Shown here piece by piece: positions 3,676-18,446 of a stretch of 22,729 nucleotides of DNA (its first letter is position 1; the number at the start of each line of letters is the position of its first letter). Origin of the DNA: a virus. The notes beneath the pieces are model-generated. The model saw nothing but the letters and a program-made list of their open reading frames with translations, did no database searches and was not told the origin of the DNA. The DNA lies in IMG/VR virus record IMGVR_UViG_3300024299_000748, positions 1 through 22,729 of that record; one strand, given 5' to 3'. The translations under genes and the position numbers were made by a program.

Positions 3676-4740
3676 TTAGATTACGCCTTTTTTTGTGGGT
3701 AAATGTGATCCTAAATAAATAGGAGTGGAGTCGTTAAAGTTTGTGTTGCCATCTGAATCTTGATAAACGATGGCGTAGCCATTCATTGCATTTTTAAATC
3801 TTAGATCTGCTCTGAATTGATAGGGGAGTTTATGCGCCATTGCGCCTTGTTCGATAAGGAGCTTTCCAGAGATAACACCCTTGTACACCTTATGTGTGTG
3901 ACCCACAACGATAGAATCAAAATCGCTAGAATCCATACGTTGTGAAAAGTGATCGTGAAGTTTAACTACGGTTGCGCCTGGGTATTTGCTTCCGAATCCA
4001 CTTGGATGACAGAAGATAGTTTTTCCAATTCGGACGTACCACGAGTCGTATTTTTGATAATGAACGTTCTTGAAATCTACGATAGTTTCTAATTCACCAA
4101 AAGTGTTTAATTTTTCTCCTGCAGCAATGCGTGACAAAAGGTCTGGACGGTAGACTTTCATAACATCGCTTGATAGTCCACTTTGTTTTATCGCTCTAGT
4201 AGTTCTATAATCATGGTTCCCAGAGACCATAACCACCGTGGGAAAGTTATTCGACAGATAGTGTACTAAGTCGAATGCAGCAATGTATTCTTTTATTGCA
4301 GCAATACTTTTAGTCTTACTGAAGGTGCTGAACATGTAGGCATCAAGGATGTCCCCATTCAGAACTACAATATCAGCGTCTTTATGCTTATCAAGTGCTG
4401 CTTTCATATCTTCCCAGAGGAAGAATGGTATGTGCAGATCACTGAAAGATATTATTTTTCTGGCTTTTGAAGTGCTAAGCCCTAGCTCTAACTTAGAGCT
4501 TTTAGACCTGAACTCCTTAGCGGTGTCAATAATATTCTTCCATGCATTGTCGTAAGTTTGAGATACTTTTGAATTATCTTTTCGAGAAATTTTAGTTCTT
4601 ACTGCGTCGAAGGTTCGCTTCACTGGAAAGCCAGGAGTTCCTTGCTCATGTTTTAGGCAGATTAATTCAGCAATTTCTTTAAAGGTTTTTTCACCAGTAA
4701 ATAGTTGCAATAGGTATTCTTCTTCAGGAGTCCATCTCAT
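3676..4740 (-). CDS. Calcineurin-like metallophosphoesterase with N-terminal SANT/Myb-like domain
   Basis: A 354-aa protein. The two-metal phosphoesterase motifs are complete: D101-x-H103 (SDLHIP), GD at 129-130 (LNGDILD), GNHD at 174-177, H245 (FCHPSG) and GHTH at 280-283. The first ~55 residues (RWTPEEEYLLQLF, later RTFDAVRTKISRK) resemble a SANT/Myb-type helix-turn-helix, which suggests nucleic-acid binding. The family hydrolyses phosphodiesters or phosphomonoesters; the Mre11/SbcD nucleases belong to it. The start overlaps the end of DnaE fragment 3 by 17 bases with an AAGGA site inside that gene, so the two are coupled. A role in DNA processing is inferred from context; a phosphatase acting on nucleotides or proteins is also possible. 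Confidence 0.85.
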   Translation of the reverse strand: MRWTPEEEYLLQLFTGEKTFKEIAELICLKHEQGTPGFPVKRTFDAVRTKISRKDNSKVSQTYDNAWKNIIDTAKEFRSKSSKLELGLSTSKARKIISFSDLHIPFFLWEDMKAALDKHKDADIVVLNGDILDAYMFSTFSKTKSIAAIKEYIAAFDLVHYLSNNFPTVVMVSGNHDYRTTRAIKQSGLSSDVMKVYRPDLLSRIAAGEKLNTFGELETIVDFKNVHYQKYDSWYVRIGKTIFCHPSGFGSKYPGATVVKLHDHFSQRMDSSDFDSIVVGHTHKVYKGVISGKLLIEQGAMAHKLPYQFRADLRFKNAMNGYAIVYQDSDGNTNFNDSTPIYLGSHLPTKKGVI

Positions 4741-5986
4741 AAAAGTCCTTATAAATATTAATTGAATTTAAAATAAGCTTTATATCTGGCTCAACTTGCT
4801 CAACCTTTACCTTGCAGGTAACGATTGTAGTTTCTTTTAAGCCTAGACTTGAAACTTTTTTCCATAGCTGTGGAAAAATAACAATTTCAGCTGAACTAGT
4901 TTTATCATTAATTTCAACGAAAGCCATCTGTTTGTTTTTTCTTGTTGTAATCTCTTTCATAGAAAGGATGACACCAGCGACGTTAGCGTAGTCACCTTCC
5001 TCTAATGAATCCAGGTCGTCTTTTTTAATTGATATCAAATCTAGTGGGTGTCCACCAATGTAACAACCAATGTAATTTGCTTGATTTAATATCTCTTCCA
5101 TACCTAGCTCAATAGAATCTGACTTAAGAAGTTCGGGGAACTCAGGCTTATCTTTCGGCTTTAGAGAGACTTTTTTCTTTAAGTTCTCAGCTTCTAATGG
5201 TTCTAGTTCCTCAGACATGAGATGAAAATTGTCTATGTCATTCTCTTTTACTTTATCTTTATCAATTCTGTTCTGTATTTTCTTAAGTTCTTTTCTAAGA
5301 AAGTTTCTACGCTCTATAAGCGGAACAACTTGGTTGTTGTAATTGTCTCGCTCCACAACGTCTAACTGGCGCTGCTTGTAGTCTTCAAGATCTCTTACGT
5401 ATGCGTAAATTAAAGGGCACTTCTCTAGAAGTCCTGCTCTATCGTAACCTAGCTTATCGAAGGCACCAGCCTTAACAAGAGCATCGAACGTTTTTGTATT
5501 TACTTTTTGAAGGTTAATTCTTGAAATAAAATCTTTAACAGATTTAAAGGGTGTTTTTTGTCGAGCTTTAATAATCATACGAGCAGCAGTCTTGCCGACG
5601 TCTCTGATTGCATTGAGCCCAAAGTATATCTCGCCATCACTGATTGTGAATTCGTATCCGCTTTGATTAACAAATGGCGGATACACATGCACACCAAACT
5701 TTTTAGCTTCTTGAATGTATTCAGGAGCTTTAATTGCCCAGGATTTAGGCTGTAAAGTTTTACTTCTTGTGGACATCAACGCAGTAAAAAACTCCACAGG
5801 GTAATGCGTCTTCATATACGCGCTTACATAAGTGAGTATGGAGTAGCTAACGCTATGTGCTTTATTAAAGCAATTAGAAGCTATAATTCCATTCTCGAGA
5901 ACAAAGTTATGATTGCCTTCCAAAGAAGCTACACCAATATCATAAACTTCTTCTTCTCCAAGGTACTCCTTTGAAATTATTTTCAT
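4724..5986 (-). CDS. dnaE: DNA polymerase III alpha subunit, C-terminal fragment, preceded by C-terminal half of a split intein
   Basis: 420 aa. Residues 1-38 are a C-intein ending IIASN. The extein starts at C39 with CFNKAHSVSYSILTYVSAY, the DnaE fingers segment that follows the ADY site of fragment 2. Next come a helix-hairpin-helix-like part (about 150-180, FDALVKAGAFDKLG), a charged helical stretch (about 198-275), the IGGHPLD motif (near 317-323) and an OB-fold domain (about 330-415). The β-clamp pentapeptide QxxLF normally found in bacterial alpha subunits is not evident. After splicing it would complete the polymerase begun by the genes at 13708-15330 and 16091-17425. The AAAGGA site overlaps the stop of the preceding gene. 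The gene lies downstream of a terminator that separates it from the virion block. Confidence 0.93.
   Translation of the reverse strand: MKIISKEYLGEEEVYDIGVASLEGNHNFVLENGIIASNCFNKAHSVSYSILTYVSAYMKTHYPVEFFTALMSTRSKTLQPKSWAIKAPEYIQEAKKFGVHVYPPFVNQSGYEFTISDGEIYFGLNAIRDVGKTAARMIIKARQKTPFKSVKDFISRINLQKVNTKTFDALVKAGAFDKLGYDRAGLLEKCPLIYAYVRDLEDYKQRQLDVVERDNYNNQVVPLIERRNFLRKELKKIQNRIDKDKVKENDIDNFHLMSEELEPLEAENLKKKVSLKPKDKPEFPELLKSDSIELGMEEILNQANYIGCYIGGHPLDLISIKKDDLDSLEEGDYANVAGVILSMKEITTRKNKQMAFVEINDKTSSAEIVIFPQLWKKVSSLGLKETTIVTCKVKVEQVEPDIKLILNSINIYKDFYEMDS
5873..5986 (-). other. C-terminal half of DnaE split intein (Int-C, 38 aa)
   Basis: Residues 1-38 of DnaE fragment 3. Block F is VYDIGV...NHNFVL and block G is NGIIASN followed by the +1 cysteine of the extein (C39). 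The terminal Asn38 and the +1 Cys are the residues needed for Asn cyclisation and transesterification. The penultimate residue is Ser rather than the common His, as in cyanobacterial DnaE inteins (from memory, Npu DnaE ends FIASN). The loop between block F strands (GVASLEGNHNF) is about three residues longer than the Npu form as remembered. Its partner is the N-half at 13711-14001. Confidence 0.93.
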
Positions 5987-5989
5987 AAG

Positions 5990-6217
5990 TTAATCCTTTA
6001 TTCTAATGGTTAAATCACTTAACTTTAAGGGCCTGCTAGAGCCTCTTTGAGAGGCTCTTTGAAGTCTTGTTAAGTTCACTTGTCGCTTTAGGTCTACTAA
6101 GCTAGAAGCATAAATAGTTGTGGTTTCAAATCCATCGAAATTGAATTTGTTTTTATAGTTGTCAATATCTGCAAGATTACAGAATTTTGGGTTTTCATAG
6201 GTTGCGACTATACGCAT
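5990..6217 (-). CDS. Small basic protein, function unknown
   Basis: A 75-aa protein with no recognised family. The N-terminal half looks mixed alpha/beta (MRIVATYENPKF) and the C-terminal half is basic (LTRLQRASQRGSSRPLK). It overlaps the 3' end of the preceding small gene by 23 bases. Its stop lies inside the ribosome site of DnaE fragment 3, three bases before that ATG, so the three genes form one translational unit. No LAGLIDADG, HNH, GIY-YIG or Vsr-type endonuclease motif is visible, although the gene lies between the two intein halves. Confidence 0.6.
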   Translation of the reverse strand: MRIVATYENPKFCNLADIDNYKNKFNFDGFETTTIYASSLVDLKRQVNLTRLQRASQRGSSRPLKLSDLTIRIKD

Positions 6218-6431
6218 TTAGGTTCCTTGAGGTTTCGTTGGGTATTTCAATGAATGTTACTTGAGAGCTCTCCCAAGTACAGACATAACTTTTGTTAGTT
6301 GTTGTAGTGAATTCTGTTGAGTAGAATTCGTGTGGCTCTATTCTATAAGTCTTTATAGACTTGATGGTTAGGCCGTGCCATTTCGTCCACTGTAGAGCAC
6401 CTTCTAGTGCTTCTTGAAACGAGTCGAACAT
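6195..6431 (-). CDS. Small protein, function unknown
   Basis: A 78-aa protein, not recognised. It begins MFDSFQEALEGALQW and continues with alternating hydrophobic and charged residues suggestive of beta strands (SYVCTWESSQVTFIEI). A good AAAGGAAA site lies just before the ATG. It is the first gene after the terminator at 6452-6486, so it opens the downstream unit that carries DnaE fragment 3. It overlaps the next gene by 23 bases. No nuclease or regulator motif is visible. Confidence 0.6.
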   Translation of the reverse strand: MFDSFQEALEGALQWTKWHGLTIKSIKTYRIEPHEFYSTEFTTTTNKSYVCTWESSQVTFIEIPNETSRNLNAYSRNL

Positions 6432-6451
6432 TTTTCTTTTCCTTTATATAT

Positions 6452-6486
6452 AAAAAAAGGGGTAGCCCGCCAATGCGAACTACCCC
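6452..6486 (-). terminator. Strong intrinsic (rho-independent) terminator
   Basis: Read on the minus strand, GGGGTAGTTCGC and GCGGGCTACCCC form a 12-bp stem (ten Watson-Crick and two G-U pairs) around the loop ATTG at 6459-6486, followed at once by seven U (6452-6458). It lies 48 bases after the stop of the 1196-aa fibre gene and 21 bases before the next ATG. There is no T tract on the other side, so it acts only on minus-strand transcription. It closes the virion block and separates it from DnaE fragment 3. Confidence 0.93.
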
Positions 6487-6533
6487 TCAAAACTAAAAGA
6501 TTACTTTATATTACTGTGTGTTGATTACTTTAA

Positions 6534-9500
6534 TTAAATTGACTGCCAACCAAATGCTGCTGTACCTATAACTTTTATTTTTTGTCCTGCAGTAAGCGTA
6601 GTGTTGGAAGCAGGGCTTCCATCAATCTGACTGGTGGAAGCAAAAGTTATAGTATTTGAGCCCACATTTTTGATTACATACTCTTTAGAAACCATGTCGG
6701 AATCGTTAGAAGTAGCCAAAGTGCAAGTACTATCCGACTCTACGTTGAATAGAATAGTATGGTCGTCACCAACAATAGTATAAGAATCGGTTTTGATTAA
6801 AGTTTTTCGTCTAACTCCATCAGTTTCCAAAAGACCGTTAATGCTAACATTGCCATCAGCAGTAATATTACCCCCAGACAATAATGTAAGATCAACTCCA
6901 GCTGCTATTTTAACGTCACCACTTGCAGAGTTTAGATTTAAATCACCAGAGGTAGATTTAAGATCATTGGCGTTTAATTGCAAATTGTCTACAGTAAGCT
7001 TTGTTAAGCTGGTTAGTGCACCGCCAGTCAAAGTAGCAGTACCATCAGTAAGAGTACCAAGAGTAACAGTACCGAGAGTGCCAATGTTTTTAGAACCATT
7101 GACCACAAGAGCTTTACTTGCAACTGCTGAACCAGGAGTTGCGCCATCAAGAACTTCAATCTCCCCATCGGCTAACGCAACAAGCTCTGTGGCAACAGCT
7201 GCTGTCAGGCTGGTTGAAAGCGTAGTAAGTTGAGTGTTTAGGCCTTGTTTAGCATCAAGCTGTGTCTGGATAGAGCCAGAAGCATTGTTAAGATGATTTA
7301 GTTCGGTAGTGGAAATTAACGCACCGTCGAGAATTTCTAGCTCTGCTTCGCTAATCACTGCGTTACCAAAAGTAATGGTGCCTGAGAAGATTGGATTGGC
7401 CGCTGGAGCTTTAGCATCAAGCTGTGTTTGGATGTTACTTGTAACTCCATCAACATAATTCAGTTCAGTTGCGTCAGCAGTAATATCAGTACTACCAATA
7501 GCGAGTGTAGTTAAATCTACACGCCCTGCAACAGTAAGGGTTCCACTTGCAACAGTAAGCAGGTCAATATCATCGGTGTGCCCAATATTAGATCCGTTAA
7601 TCTGAATATCATCAACCGCCAGGATTCCCCCAGTAAGAGTTCCAGTTGTTGTGATTGCACCTGAACCAACATCAATGGACGTGAATCCATTAGTAATACT
7701 ACCTGAATCCAAAGCACCCACAGTAGTCAAGCTTGAAGCAACTACACCTGAACCGAGAGTAGTAGCTGAAAGTACAGACGCATTATTAATTCTGTAGTCA
7801 TTACCACTAGCAAGATCGATACCGTCAGCATCGATATGCGCCTCTTCAGCACCAGCTATAGAGAGTGAAATCTCACTAGAAAAAGGAGCGTCAAGCCGAA
7901 GTTCGCCAACTTTATTGACAATATAAGAATTAGTTCCACCATGATAAAGGCTTAGATCGTTACTCGTGCCTAAAGTAAGTCTGCCGGTTGCACTGTCTGC
8001 GGAATAGCCGTCTATATCTGCGTCTGTAGCTAAATTAATAACTTGAGTAGTAGAGATATTACTTGCAGTAGAGATGGTTCCAAAACCAGAAGCAATACTA
8101 CCTGAGGCAAGAGCACCTACTGAAGTAAGGCTAGAAGCGACAACACCGCTTCCGAGAGTAGTGGCAGACAAAACATCAGTACCAGCAATCTGATACTTCT
8201 TTGTTGCTACAAGATTGAGATCGTCTTTCATATCTCCTGTAAGATCAAGATCACCTGGAATTGCAATGATTCCGTCTACATGCCCAACAGTAAGAGTCCC
8301 TGAGCTATTCAAAGTATCAAAGATTGTAAGGTTACCAGCTGCACCATCAAGATCGGTAACAGCTGTTAATTCCATAGCTTCGCCACCGATAGCAGCAGCT
8401 ATAGATGCTGCAGTAATACTAGCGCCAAGTGAAACTGATTGACCTGCAATACTCATGGCGCTTTGAGCTAACTCAGCATTTGCAATACCGCCATCCTTGA
8501 TAGTTACAGCACCACTTGAAACAAGGAAGTTGTCACCTGAAAAAGAAGCTACACCTAAAGTTGAAGCAGTAGCAGTATCGACTGCAATTGTTAAAGCTCC
8601 AGCTCCATTGTCAGCATAACTAAGACCAATTGCTTGGCCGTCGCTTAGTAACTCACTAACTCTATCGTCTACTCTTTCATCAGTGTAATACTTGTTGTCA
8701 GAATGCTCTGTGAGATTTTGAGTTGTATGATTAGAGATGCTAGTTACTACACCAGAAAAAGTAGTTGCAGTGACAGTACTAAAAGTAACATCATCAGTAG
8801 TCGCAACTGCTTGACCGATACTAAACGTACCATTAAGATGGGCAACGCCAGTTCCACCGCTTAGTTTTGAAATAACATAAGTGGGGATGCGAGATGCTAA
8901 CATAGATTTTTCTATACCGTTGCCACCATCATCAATAATGAGCAGGTCGGCATCAGCGATAGCAGCGTCCATTTCATCCGCACCATCAATATCTAAAGCA
9001 CCAAGTGAAACTTTACCAGCAGTATTAATCGTAGCTAAATCAGTATTAGAGACTTGGCCTGCAGCAAAAGTAATAGTGCCAGCTGAAACGTTGAGAGTCT
9101 TACCTACGCCAACAGTAACGTCGGAACCAGAAATACTACCACTAGTAATTTTTACATTAGTCATATCTTGATTATTGAAATTTACAGCCCCACCAGCAGC
9201 AAATGCATTGATAGTAGTTGCTGTAATGTTGTCTGAATAGACATGGCGCATTCTTAGTGCATTAGTACCCAGATCATGAGTTCCATCTACTTTTGGAACT
9301 ACACTAGATGCAAGACTACCTGTTACGGTAATATCGTCTGCAGCAGCATTGCCTAGCGTAACTGCTCCTTGCAAAGTTGTTGTACCGCTAACAGTAGCAC
9401 TACTTGCACTTAAAGTAGTCGCAGTAACAGCAGCTGCAGTTGTACCACCAATAGTTGTACCATCAATAGAGCCACCAGTGATAGCAACTTCTTCAAAAGA

Positions 9501-10124
9501 AGGAGCTGCACCTCCAGAAGTGCTAATTGCGCTTCCTGAAATCAAAACATTACCAGCTTGGATCGTACCAGAAGCAGTGATATTATTAATTCCAGTGAGA
9601 TTTTTACTATTGTCTACAGTAAGAACTTTATTAGCCTGAGCAGTACCTAAAGTTACAGCAGTAATGTAATCTATTGGAGTCCCATTGGCTTGAGGAACTT
9701 TTAGAGAGCTTCCGTTAGGAACTTCAAGATCAGCCACAAGCGTGGCTACTTCATGGGAGCCTACAGTTGTAGTAGGTTCGGCAGACGCATTTTTAAAGAT
9801 TTTGAATTTACCATCAGATGCAGCTCTAACAAAACCATGATAATCGGTTTCAGAAGAACCATTAACAGCTTTTCCATAGAATCCGATATCGAATACATCG
9901 CCAGTATTGTCTTTTGCAAGACTTATAAGCGGATCTTCTGCTGCTATAGTTGTCACTTCAGCAACAATGTTTGATCCGGTTACGGTTAGCGTACCGCCTA
10001 CAACAAGATTCCCAGAGGTAGTCAAGGTTTCTGTTTCGACGTGCACCGTGTGCACGGCGCCCCACTTAAAGGAGCTGTCTCCGAGGTCATGATCTCCGGA
10101 TGTTTCAGGTTTTATTTTTGCCAT
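6534..10124 (-). CDS. Large repetitive virion protein, probable tail fibre or receptor-binding protein
   Basis: A 1196-aa protein rich in Thr, Ser, Gly, Ala and Val, with beta-strand-like repeats throughout. The N-terminal HDLGDSSFKWGAVHTV (about 12-30) recurs as HDLGTNALRMRHVY (about 280-300). A 34-residue repeat starting near Y(Q/R)I and containing LSATTLGSGVVASSLT occurs near 643-677 and 776-810. The phage-fibre motif ELNxx...IQTQLDAK occurs twice (about 886 and 940). The last ~85 residues (YTIVGDDHTILFNV ... GWQSI) look like a compact beta domain of the kind found at fibre tips. There is no signal peptide. It follows the collagen-like gene and ends before the terminator. Virion structural role is confident; the precise part and ligand are inferred. 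Confidence 0.85.
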   Translation of the reverse strand: MAKIKPETSGDHDLGDSSFKWGAVHTVHVETETLTTSGNLVVGGTLTVTGSNIVAEVTTIAAEDPLISLAKDNTGDVFDIGFYGKAVNGSSETDYHGFVRAASDGKFKIFKNASAEPTTTVGSHEVATLVADLEVPNGSSLKVPQANGTPIDYITAVTLGTAQANKVLTVDNSKNLTGINNITASGTIQAGNVLISGSAISTSGGAAPSFEEVAITGGSIDGTTIGGTTAAAVTATTLSASSATVSGTTTLQGAVTLGNAAADDITVTGSLASSVVPKVDGTHDLGTNALRMRHVYSDNITATTINAFAAGGAVNFNNQDMTNVKITSGSISGSDVTVGVGKTLNVSAGTITFAAGQVSNTDLATINTAGKVSLGALDIDGADEMDAAIADADLLIIDDGGNGIEKSMLASRIPTYVISKLSGGTGVAHLNGTFSIGQAVATTDDVTFSTVTATTFSGVVTSISNHTTQNLTEHSDNKYYTDERVDDRVSELLSDGQAIGLSYADNGAGALTIAVDTATASTLGVASFSGDNFLVSSGAVTIKDGGIANAELAQSAMSIAGQSVSLGASITAASIAAAIGGEAMELTAVTDLDGAAGNLTIFDTLNSSGTLTVGHVDGIIAIPGDLDLTGDMKDDLNLVATKKYQIAGTDVLSATTLGSGVVASSLTSVGALASGSIASGFGTISTASNISTTQVINLATDADIDGYSADSATGRLTLGTSNDLSLYHGGTNSYIVNKVGELRLDAPFSSEISLSIAGAEEAHIDADGIDLASGNDYRINNASVLSATTLGSGVVASSLTTVGALDSGSITNGFTSIDVGSGAITTTGTLTGGILAVDDIQINGSNIGHTDDIDLLTVASGTLTVAGRVDLTTLAIGSTDITADATELNYVDGVTSNIQTQLDAKAPAANPIFSGTITFGNAVISEAELEILDGALISTTELNHLNNASGSIQTQLDAKQGLNTQLTTLSTSLTAAVATELVALADGEIEVLDGATPGSAVASKALVVNGSKNIGTLGTVTLGTLTDGTATLTGGALTSLTKLTVDNLQLNANDLKSTSGDLNLNSASGDVKIAAGVDLTLLSGGNITADGNVSINGLLETDGVRRKTLIKTDSYTIVGDDHTILFNVESDSTCTLATSNDSDMVSKEYVIKNVGSNTITFASTSQIDGSPASNTTLTAGQKIKVIGTAAFGWQSI
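7695..7796 (-). repeat. Internal 34-residue repeat, copy 2 of fibre gene
   Basis: Encodes a 34-residue unit containing LSATTLGSGVVASSLT and ending GSI. It matches the unit at 8094-8195 in length (102 nt) with strong protein identity but diverged codons, so the duplication is old or kept at the protein level. Confidence 0.8.
8094..8195 (-). repeat. Internal 34-residue repeat, copy 1 of fibre gene
   Basis: Encodes the first copy of the LSATTLGSGVVASSLT unit, 102 nt long. It is in frame with the copy at 7695-7796, about 133 residues further on in the protein. Probably a repeated beta element of the fibre shaft. Confidence 0.8.
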
Positions 10125-10156
10125 GGTAATCTCTCCTGCAATATAAAGTTTTTAAT

Positions 10157-12865
10157 TTAAAGTGTAGTACCTGTAAAGGTAATGTCGCCAGTTGTGGTGT
10201 CTATTGTAAAATGTCGATCTTCGTGTGTTTTTGCTTTGGTTCCATAGAATGTCAAATCGGCAGCACCACTATTCGCTATTGCTTGTGCGAAATCAATCCT
10301 AAATGGCCCTGCATGACTTGATAGCATTATTGTATCTGGAAGATATATTCCCGCGGTCGTCGTTTCCATAAGCAATCCGCCGCCTCTAATTTCTAAAAGA
10401 TCAATATTATCTGCATTGGTTTTAACCTGCGCATCAAGTAGAGTAGCTTCTCCAACAACATCTGTTGCGCTATCTATATAGTTTGTGCCACTTCTACTTT
10501 CATAGTTACCTGTAGAACTAATCCCAATAGCAGTTTCGTGAAGATTTCCTAATGAGTTAAGAGAAGTTATGTTAATTGTTTGCAACCTAACTTGCTCATC
10601 AACCCCTTCAATAGCTGCTTTAACAGTTGCTGCTACACTGTAGTTAGCATGATTGGCCCAAGAACCTAACGTGCCTCCAGTAGCTAAGCCTATAGTTGTT
10701 TCTATTTGATCAACTTGTGAATGTAACGCTGTGTCTTCAGAAGATAGGACTCCAGAAGCATTAATAGAAAGGTTATTCCCATTAATCTTAACACCACCAA
10801 GAATGCTTGCTGTTGCAATCACAACAGGACCAGTAGCTCCTGTTACTCCAGTGAGGCCCTGGTCTCCTTGCGGTCCTGTAGCCCCAATACTCCCTTGGAG
10901 TCCAGTTGCCCCTGTATCACCTTTGACGCTCGCTTGGAAGCTGGTGTCTGCTGCTAGGTCATCCCCAACGCTTGCTATAAAGCCACTGTGGGTAGAAAGA
11001 GTGGTCGCAATAGTTGCATTGTTTGCACCGGCACCAGCCGCTCCTGTAGCGCCGGTCGGTCCTGTAGCTCCAGCCGCTCCTGTAGCGCCGGTGTCGCCTT
11101 GAGGCCCTGTTACTCCCTGGGTTCCCGTGTCTCCAGCGGGACCTTGGACGCCAGTGTTTCCTATAGGGCCTGTTGCCCCAACGGACCCTGTAGCTCCAGC
11201 ATCGCCTTGAGGCCCTTGAATTCCTTGAGATCCAGTTGCTCCTACAGGGCCTGTTGCCCCGGTGGGGCCTTGAGATCCGGTACTTCCGGTCGTCCCAGTA
11301 TCACCTTGCAGTCCTGTGGCCCCAGTAGATCCTGTTGAGCCCGTGTCTCCAGTGGGACCCTGGACGCCTTGAGTGCCTGTTGGTCCAGCAGCTCCAGTGT
11401 CGCCTTGCGGTCCGGTTGGTCCTGTATCACCCTGCACACCTTGTGGGCCTGTTGCACCTGTTGGTCCAGTAGAACCCGCGTCCCCTTGAGGACCGGTACT
11501 ACCAGCAGCCCCAGCAGATCCTGTAGCTCCTTGAGGGCCTGTGATCCCAGCGGTACCTTGAACACCTTGAGGACCTGTATCGCCTTGAATTCCTTGAGGT
11601 CCAGTTGCTCCTGCAGGACCAGTAGAACCCACGTCACCTTGAGGGCCTGTGCTCCCTGCTGCTCCAGTGGCACCGACAACTCCCTGAGCTCCCTGGGGAC
11701 CTTGAGTCCCCGTATCGCCAGTATCACCTTTTGTACCTGTAAACTGACCGAAATCAGACCAAACACTCCCATCATAGACAACAAGATGTCCAGACATATC
11801 GCCAGCTAAAGGACTCGGCGTACTACTATCAGATCTGCTGTCAGTAGTGATAACAAAGAAGTATGGATTTTGTGCAGTGATTGAAGAGGTAGCCTGAATA
11901 CTACTAATAGCACTCTCGATTAAGACTCCTGTTTGGTCTATAGCGAATGCGTCGCCTCTGGGGCCAGTTGACCCAGTTGCGCCTGCCGGTCCTGTTGCAC
12001 CAGTATCACCCGTTGAGCCTTGCACTCCATTTGCTCCGTCGGTTCCGTCAGCGCCTGTTGGGCCAGCAACGCCTGTTGGGCCAGCAACGCCTTGAGCACC
12101 ATCGTTGCCAGTCGCCCCTTGGGGTCCAACTGCTCCGTCAGCACCAGTTGCACCATCGGCACCAACGGGTCCTTGAATCCCTTGTGGACCGTCAACGCCT
12201 TGAGCCCCTGTGGGGCCTTGAGCTCCGTCGATTCCGTTAGAACCGTTAGTTCCTGTTGCTCCTTGTGGACCCGTAGCGCCAGTAGGACCAGTTGCGCCAG
12301 TGTCGCCTTGAGGCCCTGTTGCTCCGTCGATTCCGTCAGCGCCAGTGGCGCCCTGTGGGCCAGTAGCTCCAGTGGAACCTGGATTACCTTGAGCTCCATC
12401 ATTTCCAGCAGCACCTTGAGGCCCTGTATCGCCTTGAACGCCCTGAGGACCTGTAGCACCGTCGTTGCCTGTTATTCCCTGAATACCTTGAAGCCCTGTA
12501 GCGCCATCGTCTCCAGTGGCACCTTGAGGCCCCAGGGGGCCTTGGATTCCTTGTGCACCGGCATCGCCTGTAGGTCCTTGAACGCCAGTGAGGCCTTGAG
12601 GCCCAACAGAGCCATCGTTGCCCGTCGATCCTTGTGAGCCTTGAATTCCACTGTCACCTGTGGGGCCCACAGGACCTACATTGCCTGTTGGTCCTTGTGA
12701 GCCTTGTGCCCCAGCTTGACCTTGGGTCCCCTGAGGTCCAGTTGCACCAGCAGGTCCAGTTGCACCAATTGATCCTGATACTTGTGCTATGACGGTATTT
12801 GTAATCTGGGTTATGACAGAGCTGTCAATTGCCCCTTTGCGTAAGTCAGTTCTTCTTGTAGCCAT
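10157..12865 (-). CDS. Collagen-like phage fibre protein
   Basis: 902 aa. The N-terminal 33 residues ([17 protein letters not shown]...) are followed by collagen Gly-X-Y triplets at about 34-304, a small globular insert at about 305-375 (YFFVITTD...LVVYDGSVW), a second triplet tract at about 376-611, a short break, a third tract at about 647-679 and a 220-residue C-terminal region ending in beta-rich sequence ([15 protein letters not shown]). Triplets are mostly GAT, GPQ, GPT, GDT and GIQ; Thr is common where collagen would have hydroxyproline. Such proteins form trimeric rods in tail or head fibres. The gene follows a small virion-type gene by 13 bases and precedes the large fibre gene. GC is locally high because of Gly and Pro codons. 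Confidence 0.9.
11032..11740 (-). repeat. Collagen Gly-X-Y coding repeat, second tract
   Basis: About 236 codons of uninterrupted 9-nt-period repeats encoding Gly-X-Y triplets in the collagen-like fibre gene. On the plus strand, cct/gcc/tcc motifs recur every nine bases. Copies are degenerate at the DNA level, and the boundaries are approximate. Confidence 0.85.
11953..12766 (-). repeat. Collagen Gly-X-Y coding repeat, first tract
   Basis: About 270 codons of Gly-X-Y triplets near the N-terminus of the collagen-like fibre. Some units are near-exact tandem DNA copies, for example the repeated block near 12051-12090, a likely site of length change by slippage or recombination. Confidence 0.85.
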
Positions 12866-12878
12866 TATGGAATCCTTA

Positions 12879-13283
12879 TTAAGCTAGTGTATAGCGAGCT
12901 AAAAGTACAGGAGTGTCCGTACTACTATGTCGTCTCGGAAGCTCTGCGTCGTCCCAGAGTAAATCGATTATTTTACTAGTAGCAATTTTATAGTCGCCAG
13001 CGCCATTTGGATTCAATTGGGGAGATAAAGTCATTCCGTCTAATATAATCATTATAGTATTGACTCTTGCTGATGCAGGCAGGGTTATTGTACTCAGAGG
13101 TTGCTGCGCAGCGATGAGGGCGTCGCCTGTTAGGCTGTTACCATCTGGTTCGGGATTCCAGTCTGGAAACTGATCACTTAAATCGTATGTATGGGTTCTT
13201 TGATTGTCGTCATAAACATTCACGGTGGTTACCGTAATTGTAGAAGCGTCTATATTTACTAATCCTGGATATACAACGGCCAT
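12879..13283 (-). CDS. Small virion-associated protein, probable
   Basis: A 134-aa protein, beta-strand-rich, without signal peptide or membrane segment. The motif [21 protein letters not shown] (approximately residues 78-98) resembles FFVDGQALSRMPDPTNLGPGY in the next gene upstream, so the two may be related structural subunits. It lies in the block of collagen-like and fibre genes, 13 bases before the collagen-like gene. A virion role is inferred from position and composition; the family is not recognised. Confidence 0.65.
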
Positions 13284-13327
13284 TTTCTCTCTCCTATTTA
13301 GATAGTGTATTTTGGATCATATTAACA

Positions 13328-13696
13328 TTATGGTTGATCTGTATACAATCCATGGATCTCACTAGTACTTAAATTAGTGAAACCGCTTATGGTCAAAGTC
13401 ATTCCGTCTGCAGTTAAATGATAGCCTGGTCCCAGGTTGGTCGGGTCAGGCATTCTTGATAGTGCTTGTCCGTCAACAAAAAACATAGAATTGTCTACAT
13501 GATCAACGCTCACAGGAGCAACTAATGAAATTTCTTCAGGGTTAGCAGTCCCTGATGCGATGATTGTATGATAAGAAGGAAGAGAGTTCATTATCTCTTC
13601 ATGGGTGCTCGTTTTATTGACATTTAAAGTGTCAATTTGAACTGTACTCCCTATAATATGGGTCCCGTTAGAGATATTTGTAGAGTGTGTAGCCAT
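13328..13696 (-). CDS. Small virion-associated protein, probable
   Basis: A 122-aa beta-rich protein that opens the virion block. It carries a DGQALSRMPDPTNLGPGYHL motif resembling that of the 134-aa neighbour. An AAGAGG ribosome site lies only 11 bases after the stop of DnaE fragment 2, so it is likely made from the same mRNA as that polymerase fragment and its intein half. No family is recognised; a structural role is inferred from its neighbours. Confidence 0.65.
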   Translation of the reverse strand: MATHSTNISNGTHIIGSTVQIDTLNVNKTSTHEEIMNSLPSYHTIIASGTANPEEISLVAPVSVDHVDNSMFFVDGQALSRMPDPTNLGPGYHLTADGMTLTISGFTNLSTSEIHGLYTDQP

Positions 13697-13707
13697 AAGA
13701 AAACCTC

Positions 13708-15330
13708 TTATTGTGTTTTTAATATTAAGTTTCGTTCATATATGGATTCAATTTCAACCATTTCGTTATTAATAGTTAAAAATTTATGTTCTGGAGTGCA
13801 AGAAATCTCAGCTCCAGTATCTGTTACGTACTTATAACATTTCTTTTTGCCTTTTTCATACCATTGAGCAACTCTTTGTAAATAAAATCTTTCAGAATTA
13901 GTATCAGCAGAAACGATAGTCGCAGGAATTTTGTTTTTAACAATACTTTCAATACTTAAGGCTCCACCTTGAGCCTTGATCTTTGTGCTTCCATGCAGGC
14001 AGTAGTCTGCGAATCCCACAAGGTTTTCCCATAGGTCTTGACTATAGGATTCTGATAAGCCACCTACAGAAATACACCCAGTTACAAATTTCTTTTGATA
14101 CTCGTTGAGTACTTCTACTTTCTTCTTGCCCATAGCTCTCCTAATGTCATCGGCTTCTTTGGGAGTGAACCCAGCGATACTAGAACAGATTTCCATAACT
14201 TGCTCCTGATAGACAAGAGTCCAGTATGAACTTTTTAAAATGTTAGCTATGTTTTCTGGAAGACTTGATGGTGGAGCGTTATTATATTTGTTGATTATGT
14301 ATTCTTTGTCGAGTCCCGCTTGTAGCGGACCTGGTCTGTTCAAAGCAGAAATAGCAGATAAATCTTCTATAGATCTTGGTTTAATTTTTACAATGAGCTT
14401 TTTAGCCACGCCAGAAGTTTCCATCTGAAAGACTCCTGTGAGTAAGCCTTTGTCTAATGTGGCATATGTGGCTTCGTCAAAATCTTCAATAGCGTATGGA
14501 TTTAATTTAACATCATGGTTTTCTTCAACAAGGCTCACACACTCTTTAATTATAGAAAGAGTATCTATTCCCAAGAAGTCGAATTTAATCAGACCTAACT
14601 CTTCACATTCGTCTTTGTCGAATTGAGTTATTCTTTCAGCTTTTTTATTCTTCCATAGCGGGACTATATCATCTATGTCGTTATCACTAATGATAATTCC
14701 AGCGGCATGGATACCAAAATTAGATACCATGCCCTCTATCCTGTCAGCGAATTCCAAGAAGTCTCCATATCTCTCATCGTCTTTAACTTCAGGGTTCAAT
14801 TCAAGAACCTCTTCTAATGTAGCTTCCTTACCAAACTTAGGTGGAGGAATCTTCTTTAACAGCTCGCTTAAATCTTCAGACTCTTTTTCAGTGATTCGAT
14901 AATAAGAGCGAGCAAGACTTTTTGGCTTAAAGGTTCCGTGCGTTATTATATTCGCTACTTTATCTTGACCCCAATAATCAGCACACCACTCGATTGCAAT
15001 TTCTCGATCTAAAGCATCATGGTCAATATCAATATCAGGAGGAGATCCGTCTATAGTATTTGACCTGGCTTTTAAAAAATCAAATTCATCTGTCAACCTA
15101 GTTATATAAAGTAAGATACTATTATAGGGGTTGTTAGCGAAAATTGGTAAGTGAAGATCTTTATCTTGAAGGTTCGCAACTGAATACAAGCAGTCTGAAA
15201 TCATTTGTAAATCTTTTAAAGAAGACATTTTAATTTCAAACTCTAGGAAATCAGGGTCTACTTGATTAATTCTTTCATCTATAATACATTTATCAATGTA
15301 CTGTAATATTTCTTTTCTTTTTTGATCCAT
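13708..15330 (-). CDS. dnaE: DNA polymerase III alpha subunit, middle (catalytic) fragment fused to N-terminal half of a split intein
   Basis: 540 aa. Residues 1-97 are an extension with no evident counterpart in E. coli DnaE. The catalytic palm follows: PDIDID at 98-103 gives D99 and D101, and KFDFLG gives D251, matching E. coli D401, D403 and D555 of the LVKFDFLG region. Then come FQMETSG (near 300), LNRPGPLQAG, YQEQVMEI (near 372) and GFTPKEADDIRRAMGKKK (near 386-403). The extein ends GFADY at 443 and the intein starts at C444. An AGGA site precedes the ATG. All three catalytic Asp are kept, so the fragment looks functional. It needs fragment 3 by splicing and fragment 1 by association. 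Three small genes separate it from fragment 1. Confidence 0.94.
   Translation of the reverse strand: MDQKRKEILQYIDKCIIDERINQVDPDFLEFEIKMSSLKDLQMISDCLYSVANLQDKDLHLPIFANNPYNSILLYITRLTDEFDFLKARSNTIDGSPPDIDIDHDALDREIAIEWCADYWGQDKVANIITHGTFKPKSLARSYYRITEKESEDLSELLKKIPPPKFGKEATLEEVLELNPEVKDDERYGDFLEFADRIEGMVSNFGIHAAGIIISDNDIDDIVPLWKNKKAERITQFDKDECEELGLIKFDFLGIDTLSIIKECVSLVEENHDVKLNPYAIEDFDEATYATLDKGLLTGVFQMETSGVAKKLIVKIKPRSIEDLSAISALNRPGPLQAGLDKEYIINKYNNAPPSSLPENIANILKSSYWTLVYQEQVMEICSSIAGFTPKEADDIRRAMGKKKVEVLNEYQKKFVTGCISVGGLSESYSQDLWENLVGFADYCLHGSTKIKAQGGALSIESIVKNKIPATIVSADTNSERFYLQRVAQWYEKGKKKCYKYVTDTGAEISCTPEHKFLTINNEMVEIESIYERNLILKTQ
13711..14001 (-). other. N-terminal half of DnaE split intein (Int-N, 97 aa)
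   Basis: Residues 444-540 of fragment 2. Block A is CLHGSTKI with Cys1. Block B is ISCTPEHKFLT with the TxxH motif (T69, H72 of the intein). The VAQWYEKG segment and the C-terminal IYERNL match the Npu/Ssp DnaE Int-N pattern as remembered (VAQWHDRG, IFEREL). At 97 aa it is close to the ~102 aa of Npu Int-N. The gene ends right after the intein half with no endonuclease domain. Its partner lies at 5873-5986. Confidence 0.94.
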
Positions 15331-15375
15331 GAGGTTCCTATGTTTAAGCGTTGGATTCTGCCAAGTGTTCGTAGA

Positions 15376-15404
15376 TGTAAGGGTGGTTGTTAACTACCCT
15401 TACA
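15376..15404 (-). other. Inverted repeat at the stop of a small gene
   Basis: TGTAAGGGT and ACCCTTACA form a perfect 9-bp stem; inside it, after one mismatch, GTT/AAC adds three more pairs around a 3-nt loop. The first arm contains the TAA of the gene at 15400-15645, and the element lies 45 bases before DnaE fragment 2. No U tract follows on either strand, so it is not a classical terminator. It may be an RNA processing or stability element. Confidence 0.5.
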
Positions 15405-15645
15405 TTGGGGCTTCTTTTTCGTTAGCGTAGAAAGCCGCTAAGTTTACATGGCGGCTAGTTGTAGCAGAAATAAACCTTCCAGCAGCTTTAGTGTAATCGT
15501 AAAGAATTTTGGTTCCGTCAGGGAGCGTTTCTCCTATCTTGAGTTGATAGGAGTACAAATCGTACCCGTCAGTCCAGTAATTGTCTGTGAATGATTTTGC
15601 AGGCGCATTGTTGCGCCAAAATTTAGGTATTTGGTCTATTTTCAT
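15400..15645 (-). CDS. Small protein, function unknown
   Basis: An 81-aa protein, rich in aromatic residues (FTDNYWTDGYDLYSYQLKIG), not recognised. It overlaps the preceding gene by 23 bases and its stop is inside the hairpin at 15376-15404. It lies in the trio of small genes that separates DnaE fragments 1 and 2. There is no intein, nuclease or membrane motif. Confidence 0.6.
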   Translation of the reverse strand: MKIDQIPKFWRNNAPAKSFTDNYWTDGYDLYSYQLKIGETLPDGTKILYDYTKAAGRFISATTSRHVNLAAFYANEKEAPM

Positions 15646-15898
15646 TTTTTTCGGAATTCCATTGTACGGTTATCGCTGCAATTAAATTAATATAATAATC
15701 GCAATAATCATTATTAACCCAACTTCCATCATCGTGGCGGAAAGCCGTATTGGGTCTTTCACTTTTCATTATTGAATCAGCACAGTCTGAAATCTTTTCA
15801 AAGCGATGCTCATCATGTAAGTCTGAATGATGCTTAATTAAAAATTCTACAGCTTCAGCTGTAGTCGTTACCTCTGGTTTCATCTGGCTGGAGTCCAT
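15623..15898 (-). CDS. Small acidic protein, function unknown
   Basis: A 91-aa protein, not recognised. It is mostly helical in appearance (AEAVEFLIKHHSDLHDEHRF) with a Tyr/Cys/Trp-containing C-terminal half. The start is uncertain: the ATG at 15898 overlaps the upstream gene by 19 bases, while an ATG five codons later (15883) gives a classic ATGA stop/start overlap with it. Neither has a clear ribosome site. It is the second of the three genes between DnaE fragments 1 and 2. Confidence 0.6.
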   Translation of the reverse strand: MDSSQMKPEVTTTAEAVEFLIKHHSDLHDEHRFEKISDCADSIMKSERPNTAFRHDDGSWVNNDYCDYYINLIAAITVQWNSEKNENRPNT

Positions 15899-16071
15899 TC
15901 GGTGTGGTTCATAAATTCACACCTTACTATTCGCACATCGTTACGATTCAATGAGCGTCTAGCTGTTCTGGCGTCGACTCTAGTCGTGTAAAGAGAGCGA
16001 TTCTTAATATTGATTAGATGCCCGTGGTTATCTTGGATCGCGTAAAGGGTTGTTGCGTAAGTTTTATCCAT
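15880..16071 (-). CDS. Small basic protein, function unknown
   Basis: A 63-aa protein with an Arg-rich centre (TTRVDARTARRSLNRNDVRI), compatible with nucleic-acid binding but not matched to a family. An AGAGAA ribosome-site-like sequence precedes the ATG. It lies 19 bases after the stop of DnaE fragment 1 and overlaps the next gene, so it belongs to the polymerase operon. Confidence 0.6.
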   Translation of the reverse strand: MDKTYATTLYAIQDNHGHLINIKNRSLYTTRVDARTARRSLNRNDVRIVRCEFMNHTEWTPAR

Positions 16072-16090
16072 AGTATTCTCTTATCGTGTG

Positions 16091-17425
16091 TTAAAAAGGT
16101 ATAGTTATGCCATCTGCTTTGATGGCCATTTGCTTGTTGAAGATCAGAGGGGTAGCTCCTCGACCTTCATTTAAAAATCTTTCAAAGATTAAACCGTATT
16201 TGATTGGATCAACTTCAGTGATGCCTAGTGCATAAGCGATTAGGGACCCTGCAGCAGAGCCACGACCAGGCCCATGAAGGACACCTCTTGTTCGCGCTCC
16301 ATCCATAAACTGAGCTACAATCAACAGGTAGTCAGAGAATCCCATCTTTTTGATTACATTAAGTTCATGAGTCAATCTGTTTTGATATTCCAAAGTCGGC
16401 ATCTGACCAAACCTATTGAATAGTCCATGCTGGCTTTCTAGAGCTAAAAAGTCAATGCTAGTATAACCTTCGGGAAGGTCTTTAAACTTCGGGTACCTGT
16501 TCATCCTGTCCATAAAATAAGTGTCTGAATCTATCATATTCGCAAGTTCGACAGTGTTCGAAATAACGTCGTATGGCATTCCTTGATTTGAAGATTCGTT
16601 CCACATCCAGTCATGATCTGCCATATGAACTTTTATTTCACCAAATGAAAACCTCTTTGGATTCGACAACGTTGTCTTAGTCTGCAAGCATAATGCTGCT
16701 TCATGATGCATTTTATCATGCTCATAAGCGTAATGACAATCGTTTGTGACTATCATCGGGAAGTTGTTTTTTAAAGCGATTTGCTGCAAGACTTTATTTA
16801 CAGCCTGCTGTTCTTCTTCTCGGTGCAATTGTAATTCAACGATGAATCTATCTTTGAATATGGCTCGATGATGATGAATTAATTTTTCGGCTGCAGTAAT
16901 TTCGTTATTTAGTATCAGCTGAGAGGCGCGACTACCCAAGCAAGTAGTGGTAGCGATTAGACCTTCCGAGTGGTCTGCAAGAAGTTTATCATCAATCCTA
17001 GGCTTCCTATAGAAGCCAGTGGTATAGGCTTTAGAGGACAGCTTTATTAAGTTGTGTAAGCCAATATTATTTTGAGCCAAAAGGATTAAGTGGTAATAGC
17101 TCTTTCCCATTTCGTCTGGCTCTCGAAGAGTTCTGTCGTTAATGGAATAGTAAGCTTCCATGCCTATTATGGGCTTAACATTTACTTTGTTGCACTCTTT
17201 GTAAAACCTATAACACCCAGAAATGTTACCATGATCTGTCATTGCAACTGCTGGCTGATTCATAGTTTTAACAAAAGATGGGAGCCTAGAGACCTTATTT
17301 ATGCCATCAAGCAAAGAGTATTCTGTGTGCACATGTAGATGTACATACTTTGACTCAGTGTGGTTGGAGGTTATATCCTGACTATTTTTAGCTGTATGCC
17401 TGGAGCAGTCATGCGTCATCTTCAT
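16091..17425 (-). CDS. dnaE: DNA polymerase III alpha subunit, N-terminal fragment (PHP domain and first palm motif)
   Basis: 444 aa from the chosen ATG. The PHP domain shows HLHVHTEYSLLDG (H29, H31, H33), MTDHGN (62-67), the GMEAYY strand and TNDCHYAYEHD, so its metal-binding residues appear kept and a proofreading or pyrophosphatase role is possible. The first polymerase motif GPGRGSAAGS is at 385-394, then DPIKYGLIFERFLNEGRG. The protein stops about 22 residues later, just where E. coli DnaE would run into PDFDVD; that motif is in the next fragment. No intein block is seen at its end. The frame stays open upstream inside recA, but the ATG at 17425 (or 17419) gives a sensible 9-17 base overlap with recA. 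Confidence 0.92.
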   Translation of the reverse strand: MKMTHDCSRHTAKNSQDITSNHTESKYVHLHVHTEYSLLDGINKVSRLPSFVKTMNQPAVAMTDHGNISGCYRFYKECNKVNVKPIIGMEAYYSINDRTLREPDEMGKSYYHLILLAQNNIGLHNLIKLSSKAYTTGFYRKPRIDDKLLADHSEGLIATTTCLGSRASQLILNNEITAAEKLIHHHRAIFKDRFIVELQLHREEEQQAVNKVLQQIALKNNFPMIVTNDCHYAYEHDKMHHEAALCLQTKTTLSNPKRFSFGEIKVHMADHDWMWNESSNQGMPYDVISNTVELANMIDSDTYFMDRMNRYPKFKDLPEGYTSIDFLALESQHGLFNRFGQMPTLEYQNRLTHELNVIKKMGFSDYLLIVAQFMDGARTRGVLHGPGRGSAAGSLIAYALGITEVDPIKYGLIFERFLNEGRGATPLIFNKQMAIKADGITIPF

Positions 17426-18446
17426 TCTCGTCTTCTCTATCTGAACTGAGGATATGATGATATAGCAGTTGGTAGTCCTCTGGGTTGTCAATAAAATGAC
17501 TTTTCGCCCCCAGCTTACCACCAGTACAAAGAGACTCTTCTTCTTTTGTTGCAGGGTTTATCCACTTGACGGATGAGCCTGCAAACCTCATCAACCCTAC
17601 GTCTTTAGCATAACCAATTATGTCTAAATAAGGATCTGTGCCTTTTCCACATATAAAGTCAAACTCAGCAGTTTTATTTAAAGCGGGAGCAACTTTGTTT
17701 TTGACAACTTTAACCTTCATTGTTATGGCGCCATCTTGATCTTTAGAGGGCTTACTGCTTACTCGAAGTCGAACCGAGCAGTAAAAAGGTATGGCGTTGC
17801 CACCTGAAGTTGTTTCTGGGTTCCCATACATAACGCCAATTTTCATTCTAACTTGATTAATAAACAAGTATAGACATTCGTTATCAACGCTTATCTTGGA
17901 TATAGAACGCAAAGCTTTTGAAAGTAAGCGAGGTAAGTCGCCTACTCCCGTTTCATTCATTAATCTTTTTGTGTCTTTTTCGCTTTGAGCAGCGTCAATA
18001 CTATCAAAAACTATTATGCCGACTTTACCTGTCTTACCAAGGTCTTGACAGAGCTGAAGTGCTTCTTCGGCGGTGTCAGGATAACAAAAAATCATTTTTT
18101 TTGGTTCGAGCCCCATAGAAGTGACAAGATCCAAACCAGTAGTGCGTTCAAGATCAACATAGACAGGAGGTCTGTCATATCCATATTTTTCTGTAAACTG
18201 TTTAAGTACTTGTAGGCAGAGAGAGGTTTTTCCGGCACTGGGCGGACCATATATTTCGACGACACGATCATTAGGTAAGCCTCCAACGCCAAGACAAGCA
18301 TCCAAAGATATTGAGCCTGTAGAGATTGGTGTAACTTTTTCATATTTAGGTCCTAAACTCATAATGTCTTCTTTGCCAAATTTCTTGGCAATAGAAGCTG
18401 CAATCATATCAATTTCGGGGATCCCTGTAATTTTTTTATTTGCCAT
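17409..18446 (-). CDS. recA: RecA recombinase
   Basis: 345 aa, the usual RecA length. Walker A GPPSAGKT is at 67-74, the catalytic-type Glu is in VDLERTTG (E100), Walker B GIIVFDS is at 143-149, and the DNA-binding L2 region NQVRMKIGVMYGNPETTSGG spans 197-216. The C-terminus is acidic (SSDREDENEDDA), as in bacterial RecA. It forms filaments on single-stranded DNA for strand exchange, serving recombination-dependent replication and repair. AAGGA lies seven bases before the ATG. It sits directly before DnaE fragment 1, with the two genes overlapping. Confidence 0.97.
   Translation of the reverse strand: MANKKITGIPEIDMIAASIAKKFGKEDIMSLGPKYEKVTPISTGSISLDACLGVGGLPNDRVVEIYGPPSAGKTSLCLQVLKQFTEKYGYDRPPVYVDLERTTGLDLVTSMGLEPKKMIFCYPDTAEEALQLCQDLGKTGKVGIIVFDSIDAAQSEKDTKRLMNETGVGDLPRLLSKALRSISKISVDNECLYLFINQVRMKIGVMYGNPETTSGGNAIPFYCSVRLRVSSKPSKDQDGAITMKVKVVKNKVAPALNKTAEFDFICGKGTDPYLDIIGYAKDVGLMRFAGSSVKWINPATKEEESLCTGGKLGAKSHFIDNPEDYQLLYHHILSSDREDENEDDA

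What the first reader, a model, noticed from the sequence alone, without database searches (positions are those of the whole stretch)
5870..14001. Phage DnaE joined by a split intein in trans across 7.7 kb
Fragment 2 ends in a 97-aa Int-N (Cys1, TPEH block B) right after GFADY, and fragment 3 begins with a 38-aa Int-C (NGIIASN) right before CFNKAHS. The two extein ends meet exactly at the fingers site that carries the cyanobacterial DnaE split inteins. All residues needed for trans-splicing are visible in both halves, and the polymerase residues on both sides are intact. The gene is therefore split but apparently working. A split DnaE intein in a phage, with virion genes between its halves, is not something I can name a precedent for.
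Basis: partly seen in the sequence, partly recalled or inferred. Interest (0 to 1): 0.92.

Follow-up and report, generated by a model that had tools for sequence, protein, structure and literature searches.

The report
Phage DNA polymerase rejoined by split intein
A family of uncultivated phages encodes its replicative DNA polymerase in separate genes, two of which carry matching halves of a self-splicing protein element of the kind long known from cyanobacterial DnaE, with phage tail-type genes lying between the halves; the pieces look built to be stitched into one protein after translation.

Summary
Window 13711-14001(-) is a 97-aa Int-N after ..GFADY of DnaE fragment 2. Window 5873-5986(-) is a 38-aa Int-C before CFNKAHS of fragment 3. 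They lie 7.7 kb apart on one strand. Both halves match cyanobacterial DnaE split inteins (Npu, Ssp) first, at the same insertion site. Mis-assembly is excluded: 13 other IMG/VR contigs (18-198 kb) carry both halves in the same order and strand, with gaps of 2.8-13.5 kb. Splice residues (Cys1, TxxH, Asn, Cys+1) are kept in all. One relative (L009) has the two fragments fused at exactly ..GFADY|CFNK.. without an intein. Trans-splicing to an 825-residue chain is very likely, though untested.

(1) DnaE is in three pieces; the fragment 1/2 break has no intein and cuts a lineage-specific insertion, so the polymerase probably remains a two-chain complex. (2) There are precedents: fractured genes, split PolB inteins in phages, and phage dnaE split inteins at other sites with endonuclease genes between the halves (found here). 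New are the cyanobacterial DnaE site and intein type in a phage family, and tail-fibre and lysis genes between the halves instead of endonucleases.

The parts
13711..14001 (-). Int-N, 97 aa (CLHGSTKIK...CTPEHKF...LILKTQ), C-terminal part of fragment 2
   Evidence: intein_Nterm; Npu DnaE Int-N, E 9e-17; Cys1, T69, H72 invariant; all 17 Foldseek hits at E<=0.001 are DnaE inteins
14002..15330 (-). DnaE fragment 2 extein, 443 aa: 94-aa head, palm with PDIDID and KFDF motifs, fingers, ending GFADY
   Evidence: DNA_pol3_alpha 100-260, DNA_pol3_finger; collinear with the fused L009 protein
5873..5986 (-). Int-C, 38 aa (MKIISKEYLGEEEVYDIGVASLEGNHNFVLENGIIASN)
   Evidence: intein_Cterm; Npu DnaE Int-C
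4724..5872 (-). DnaE fragment 3 extein, 382 aa, starting CFNKAHS (Cys+1): rest of the polymerase after the fingers, HhH, OB fold
   Evidence: (HHH_6, tRNA_anti-codon OB)
16091..17521 (-). DnaE fragment 1: PHP domain and first part of the palm, ending FERFLNEGRGATP + 18-aa tail; no intein motif (true start probably downstream of this GTG)
15400..16071 (-). Three small genes between fragments 1 and 2; content varies among relatives
13328..13696 (-). Gap gene, 122 aa, conserved next to the Int-N gene in L003-L005
12879..13283 (-). Gap gene, 134 aa, conserved in L003-L005
10157..12865 (-). Gap gene: collagen-repeat protein, 902 aa (probable virion fibre/appendage)
   Evidence: PF01391, E 8.5e-82
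6534..10124 (-). Gap gene: 1196-aa repeat-rich fibre-like protein
   Evidence: no family hit; inferred from composition and neighbours
6457..6488 (-). Intrinsic-terminator-like hairpin (14-bp stem, U run) between the fibre gene and the Int-C gene group
   Evidence: similar hairpins in L083, L087 and others in L088, L122; absent in L120, L126, L128
5990..6431 (-). Two small genes directly upstream of the Int-C gene (78 and 75 aa)

Best explanation
The phage's DNA polymerase III alpha is made from three genes. Int-N on fragment 2 and Int-C on fragment 3 associate and form a class-1 (Cys1 ... Asn/Cys+1) intein of the cyanobacterial DnaE type; it excises itself and ligates fragment 2 to fragment 3 in trans into one 825-residue chain holding the catalytic palm, fingers, HhH and OB parts. 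Fragment 1 (PHP and start of the palm) is not spliced; its tail and the head of fragment 2 are the two halves of an insertion that is contiguous in a distant relative, so fragment 1 most likely binds the spliced chain non-covalently. Shown: sequence anatomy, residue conservation, collinearity with a fused intein-less homologue, independent occurrence. Inferred: trans-splicing itself, assembly with fragment 1, and separate transcription of the two halves.
For: Profile and PDB matches of both halves to DnaE inteins; the Int-N model matches only DnaE inteins at E<=0.001 (TM about 0.46, half-domain, so supportive only). The fused intein-less homologue L009 runs ..GFADY|CFNK.. with no residue missing or extra at the junction and has an open 824-aa frame. 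13 other contigs hold both halves. Catalytic residues are invariant while Int-N otherwise diverges; in the closest unsaturated pair (G008/G009) Int-N dN 0.19, dS 0.52, Int-C dN 0.01, dS 0.41. All intein-bearing members have Cys at +1, while intein-less viral DnaEs of other lineages have G, A or S there. Fragment 1/2: profile coordinates abut (443/441 in phrog_405), no intein hits, insertion contiguous in L023.
Against: No biochemical, proteomic or expression data. Int-N evolves unusually fast, and some members (for example L006/L095) shift the block-F His by one residue, so activity may vary. The model of the fused L009 protein was of low confidence (pLDDT 58) and gives no structural support. 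Non-covalent function of unspliced halves cannot be excluded from sequence.
Confidence: 0.88

Rival explanations
1. The intein halves are vestigial; the polymerase works as a non-covalent three-chain complex and the halves are kept only as docking domains.
For: The frag1/frag2 break suggests that this polymerase tolerates a split without an intein; fast Int-N divergence.
Against: Cys1, TxxH, terminal Asn and Cys+1, which matter for chemistry and not for docking, are the invariant positions across divergent members.
Confidence: 0.07
2. The arrangement is an assembly chimera or a recent breakage (decaying gene).
For: A single metagenomic record on its own could be chimeric.
Against: 13 further contigs from different metagenomes with the same order and strand; the ORFs are intact.
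Confidence: 0.01
3. As to origin only (compatible with the main explanation): an ordinary HEG-driven fractured gene, in which the late genes between the halves are a later insertion and the split has no regulatory meaning.
For: Other phage dnaE split inteins have HNH or LAGLIDADG ORFs between the halves; LAGLIDADG ORFs sit at the frag1/frag2 break in L012 and L141.
Against: No HEG was found in the window gap. Late-type genes occupy the gap in several members down to the distant G017, which argues for a long-lived arrangement but not for regulation.
Confidence: 0.6
4. The fragment 1/2 break is also repaired, by an unrecognised atypical intein or a trans-spliced intron.
For: Extein ends nearly abut.
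Against: No nucleophile with intein blocks at the junction, no Rfam intron in the window, intervening DNA not conserved among relatives, and both tail and head are conserved as protein with a contiguous counterpart in L023.
Confidence: 0.04

Closest known systems
Cyanobacterial DnaE split inteins (Npu, Ssp DnaE)
   Same: Same protein, same insertion site (Y|C before FN), same split position (about 100 + 36-38 aa), same catalytic residues, best sequence hits.
   Different: Host gene is a phage DnaE, 33-35% identical in the extein to cyanobacterial DnaE and in a separate clade; halves are kilobases apart in one gene cluster with tail-type genes between; DnaE has an additional non-intein break.
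Fractured genes with split inteins (Dassa et al. 2009, cited in PMC3653736 and PMC10448857; the paper itself is not held)
   Same: Gene split at an intein, two ORFs each with one intein half, phage or phage-like genes.
   Different: No homing endonuclease between the halves here; late-type structural/lysis genes instead; host gene is DnaE.
PolB split inteins of phages (Aes123, CP21, MIJ3) (PMC11923092, PMC12707363, PMC6892783)
   Same: Phage replicative DNA polymerase split by an intein; in MIJ3 another ORF lies between the halves.
   Different: Family B polymerase; Aes123 and CP21 are cysteine-less inteins; the MIJ3 intervening ORF is an HNH endonuclease.
Aeh1 NrdA gene in pieces (described in PMC3653736)
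   Same: Model for the frag1/frag2 break: a gene split by a HEG whose pieces function as separate polypeptides.
   Different: Other protein; here a HEG is present at the break only in distant relatives (L012, L141).

Membership tests
Cyanobacterial-type DnaE split intein | Insertion at the DnaE Y|CFN site | tested here: met
   fused L009 versus halves; cyanobacterial FAEY|CLSY junctions
Cyanobacterial-type DnaE split intein | Closest sequence and profile relatives are DnaE split inteins | tested here: met
Cyanobacterial-type DnaE split intein | Class-1 residues: Cys1, TxxH, block F His, terminal Asn, Cys+1 | tested here: met
Cyanobacterial-type DnaE split intein | Protein trans-splicing activity | not testable with these tools
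   Needs an expression experiment
Cyanobacterial-type DnaE split intein | Common descent with the cyanobacterial alleles after the split | tested here: inconclusive
   10 phages form one group (95/89); L007 and L322 unresolved; G017 (L141) falls weakly among cyanobacteria (86/70); long branches
Fractured gene (split intein + HEG) | Two ORFs, each extein part with one intein half | tested here: met
Fractured gene (split intein + HEG) | Homing endonuclease gene between the halves | tested here: not met
   no nuclease family in the six gap genes
Phage DNA polymerase III alpha (DnaE) | PHP, palm, fingers, HhH, OB in order across the three ORFs | tested here: met
Phage DNA polymerase III alpha (DnaE) | Polymerase activity of the reassembled protein | not testable with these tools
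   Needs biochemistry

The most novel reading that the evidence does not exclude
The split is a regulatory device: the Int-N half is transcribed with the genes leading into the late tail/lysis island and the Int-C half from a separate unit behind a terminator, so full-length polymerase forms only when both units are expressed, making protein splicing an AND gate between replication and late expression; and phages of this kind are a reservoir for the DnaE split intein of cyanobacteria.
Probability: 0.12. Interest if true: 0.85.

Novelty: new variant of a known kind. Interest (0 to 1): 0.64.

Why it matters
The split DnaE intein is the workhorse of protein trans-splicing and is known to me, and in the papers searched, from cyanobacteria. 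Same-site, same-type split inteins throughout a phage family, one intein-less allele, and a second deep phage lineage with the same layout make the question of how that intein became split and moved directly testable. The finding adds about a dozen divergent natural Int-N/Int-C pairs, and it shows that a split intein can let a block of structural genes several kilobases long settle inside an essential polymerase gene.

Tried and rejected
Mis-assembly: rejected by independent contigs. Intein or intron at the frag1/frag2 break: no motif, no Rfam hit in the window, variable intervening DNA. Cyanophage origin: no psbA in 12 related records while the control rings in Synechococcus, so no sign of a cyanobacterial host, though absence proves little. 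The genome scan with alignment A1 failed for lack of conserved stretches; a Npu query worked. Structure prediction of the fused L009 protein was of too low confidence to use. dS is saturated for most pairs, so only G008/G009 gives a usable ratio. No isolate phage in INPHARED carries a recognisable copy at this site; hits there were other proteins or inteins at the neighbouring FNK|S site. Literature: the full text of Dassa 2009 is not held, so whether DnaE was among its examples could not be checked.

Full report
Observation. Fragment 2 is 443 residues of extein followed by 97 residues of Int-N; fragment 3 is 38 residues of Int-C followed by 382 residues of extein. NCBIfam finds intein_Nterm and intein_Cterm exactly there, and the cyanobacterial split-DnaE models (PRK09532 for the N half, PRK07373 for the C half) align through the intein parts. 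Against the PDB, Int-N hits Npu DnaE at E 9e-17 and Int-C hits it at E 1e-8; nearly all other hits are DnaE inteins as well. An AlphaFold model of Int-N (pLDDT 80, pTM 0.41) has only DnaE inteins among its 17 Foldseek hits at E<=0.001; TM-scores are about 0.46, as may be expected for half a domain, so this is supportive only.

Not an artefact. The window is a 22.7-kb IMG/VR record. A 65.6-kb record repeats it at about 100% identity and 12 further contigs repeat the layout at lower identity: frag2 with Int-N, then, on the same strand, the Int-C gene after 7.7 (G001, G002), 8.2 (G003, G004), 11.5 (G005), 4.0 (G006), 9.4 (G008), 9.1 (G009), 13.5 (G010), 8.4 (G014), 12.2 (G015), 2.8 (G016) and 3.5 kb (G017). 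G017, a 197.7-kb record with only about 35% identity in frag2, shows the same layout: recA, frag1, frag2 with Int-N, two virion-like genes, Int-C with frag3, primase. Several more contigs hold only the Int-C side.

Empty site. L009 (G007, 75.7 kb) encodes fragments 2 and 3 as one 808-residue ORF without intein. Aligned with the extein parts of the others it continues ..GFADY|CFNK.. with no gap at the junction, so the extein ends are exact. In intein-less viral DnaEs of other lineages the residue at +1 is Gly, Ala or Ser, but in L009 it is Cys, as in every intein-bearing member. This, with its position inside the family in the extein tree (94/68, weak), suggests loss of the intein in L009, although a pre-existing Cys cannot be excluded.

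Selection. Across the phages Cys1, Leu2, Thr69 and His72 of Int-N and Ser37-Asn38-Cys39 around the Int-C junction are invariant. Int-N as a whole diverges fast: 42% identity between window and L003, where the adjoining exteins are 86-88% and Int-C 95% identical. G008 and G009 have identical protein over the shared part of the frag2 extein but 71% identity in Int-N, with dN 0.19 and dS 0.52. The element is changing quickly but under constraint at the chemical positions. Why Int-N outruns Int-C is unexplained; selection for partner specificity during co-infection is one idea, untested.

Fragment 1/2 break. Profile coordinates of frag1 and frag2 abut (443 then 441 of phrog_405). Frag1 continues for an 18-residue tail (LIFNKQM...) and frag2 begins with a head of about 94 residues; both are conserved in the family, including L009. 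In L023 the corresponding stretch is one continuous insertion between FERFLNPDR and CDIDVDF. There are no intein blocks, no Rfam intron in the window, and the DNA in between differs among relatives. In L012 and L141 a LAGLIDADG ORF lies at this break. The best reading is a HEG-associated split whose two products associate, as described for NrdA of phage Aeh1. The PDIDID and KFDF motifs, which carry the three catalytic aspartates of DnaE by general knowledge of the family, are both on frag2 (sequence).

What lies between. In the window: two small conserved genes, a collagen-repeat protein, a 1196-residue fibre-like protein, two small genes. In relatives the gap genes match PHROG tail-fibre, head-decoration and endolysin families. 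No homing endonuclease was found in the window gap. A terminator-like hairpin with a 14-bp stem and U run lies between the fibre gene and the Int-C gene group at 6488-6457(-); near-identical ones occur in L083 and L087, and others in L088 and L122, but not in L120, L126 or L128. So in a part of the family the two halves are probably in separate transcription units. This rests on a consensus scan, not on evidence of function.

Origin. In an Int-N tree with 34 cyanobacterial sequences, ten phages form one group (95/89), two are unresolved, and G017 falls among cyanobacteria with weak support. The exteins are 33-35% identical to cyanobacterial DnaE and the window family is a clade of its own (100/100) apart from cyanobacteria. 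The intein has therefore not simply come along with a cyanobacterial dnaE gene. The direction of transfer is unresolved. No psbA was found.

Precedent. Split inteins in phage PolB are published (PMC11923092; PMC12707363; PMC6892783, with an HNH ORF between the halves). Fractured genes are cited from 2009; the paper is not held. Cultured Rhodococcus phages and a gut phage have contiguous inteins at the neighbouring FNK|S site. No isolate with an intein at Y|CFN was found, and no paper found describes one. Hence: a new variant of a known kind.

Noticed in passing
window 15331-16090; L012:9118-9900; L141:7143-7562: dnaE fragment 1/2 break inside an insertion that is contiguous in L023; LAGLIDADG ORFs sit at the break in distant relatives. 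A genes-in-pieces polymerase without intein.
   Followed up: partly
L130 / L141 (IMGVR_UViG_3300035137_000026, 197.7 kb): A second, deep phage lineage with the same dnaE-IntN // virion-like genes // IntC-dnaE layout; its frag2 and frag3 appear to carry additional contiguous inteins.
   Followed up: partly
L149:9620-12430; L150:9389-12337; L152:4985-7826; L143:9158-12398: Other viral dnaE genes with split inteins at different sites, with HNH, LAGLIDADG or unknown ORFs between the halves; L143 has two split inteins in a row.
   Followed up: partly
L010:3970-5983: recA broken after ..GVMYGN by a 205-aa nuclease-like ORF (weak REase_MTES_1575 match); no Rfam intron found there.
   Followed up: partly
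L323:2397-2719 (G015, 123.7 kb): Group I intron (Rfam RF00028) inside dnaE fragment 2, so this dnaE combines an intron with a split intein.
   Followed up: partly
L008:1202-1464: dnaE fragment 2 interrupted after RRAMG by about 260 nt, no Rfam match.
   Followed up: no
L023:6903-8515: recA appears interrupted by an intein-like sequence spread over two ORFs (..NPET|CVSPSTK.. and ..LINHN|TTGGN..), next to a dnaE with two contiguous inteins.
   Followed up: no
window 13711-14001 versus 5873-5986 and relatives: Int-N evolves much faster than Int-C and exteins (42% versus 95% and 86-88% identity between window and L003).
   Followed up: partly
window 10157-12865: 902-aa collagen-repeat protein with six Pfam collagen stretches and a local G+C of 56-57% against about 40% elsewhere.
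   Followed up: no
L338, L339 (Rhodococcus phages Weasels2, Trina): Cultured phages with dnaE in two genes (PHP part and the rest) and a contiguous intein at FNK|S, three residues from the site studied here.
   Followed up: partly
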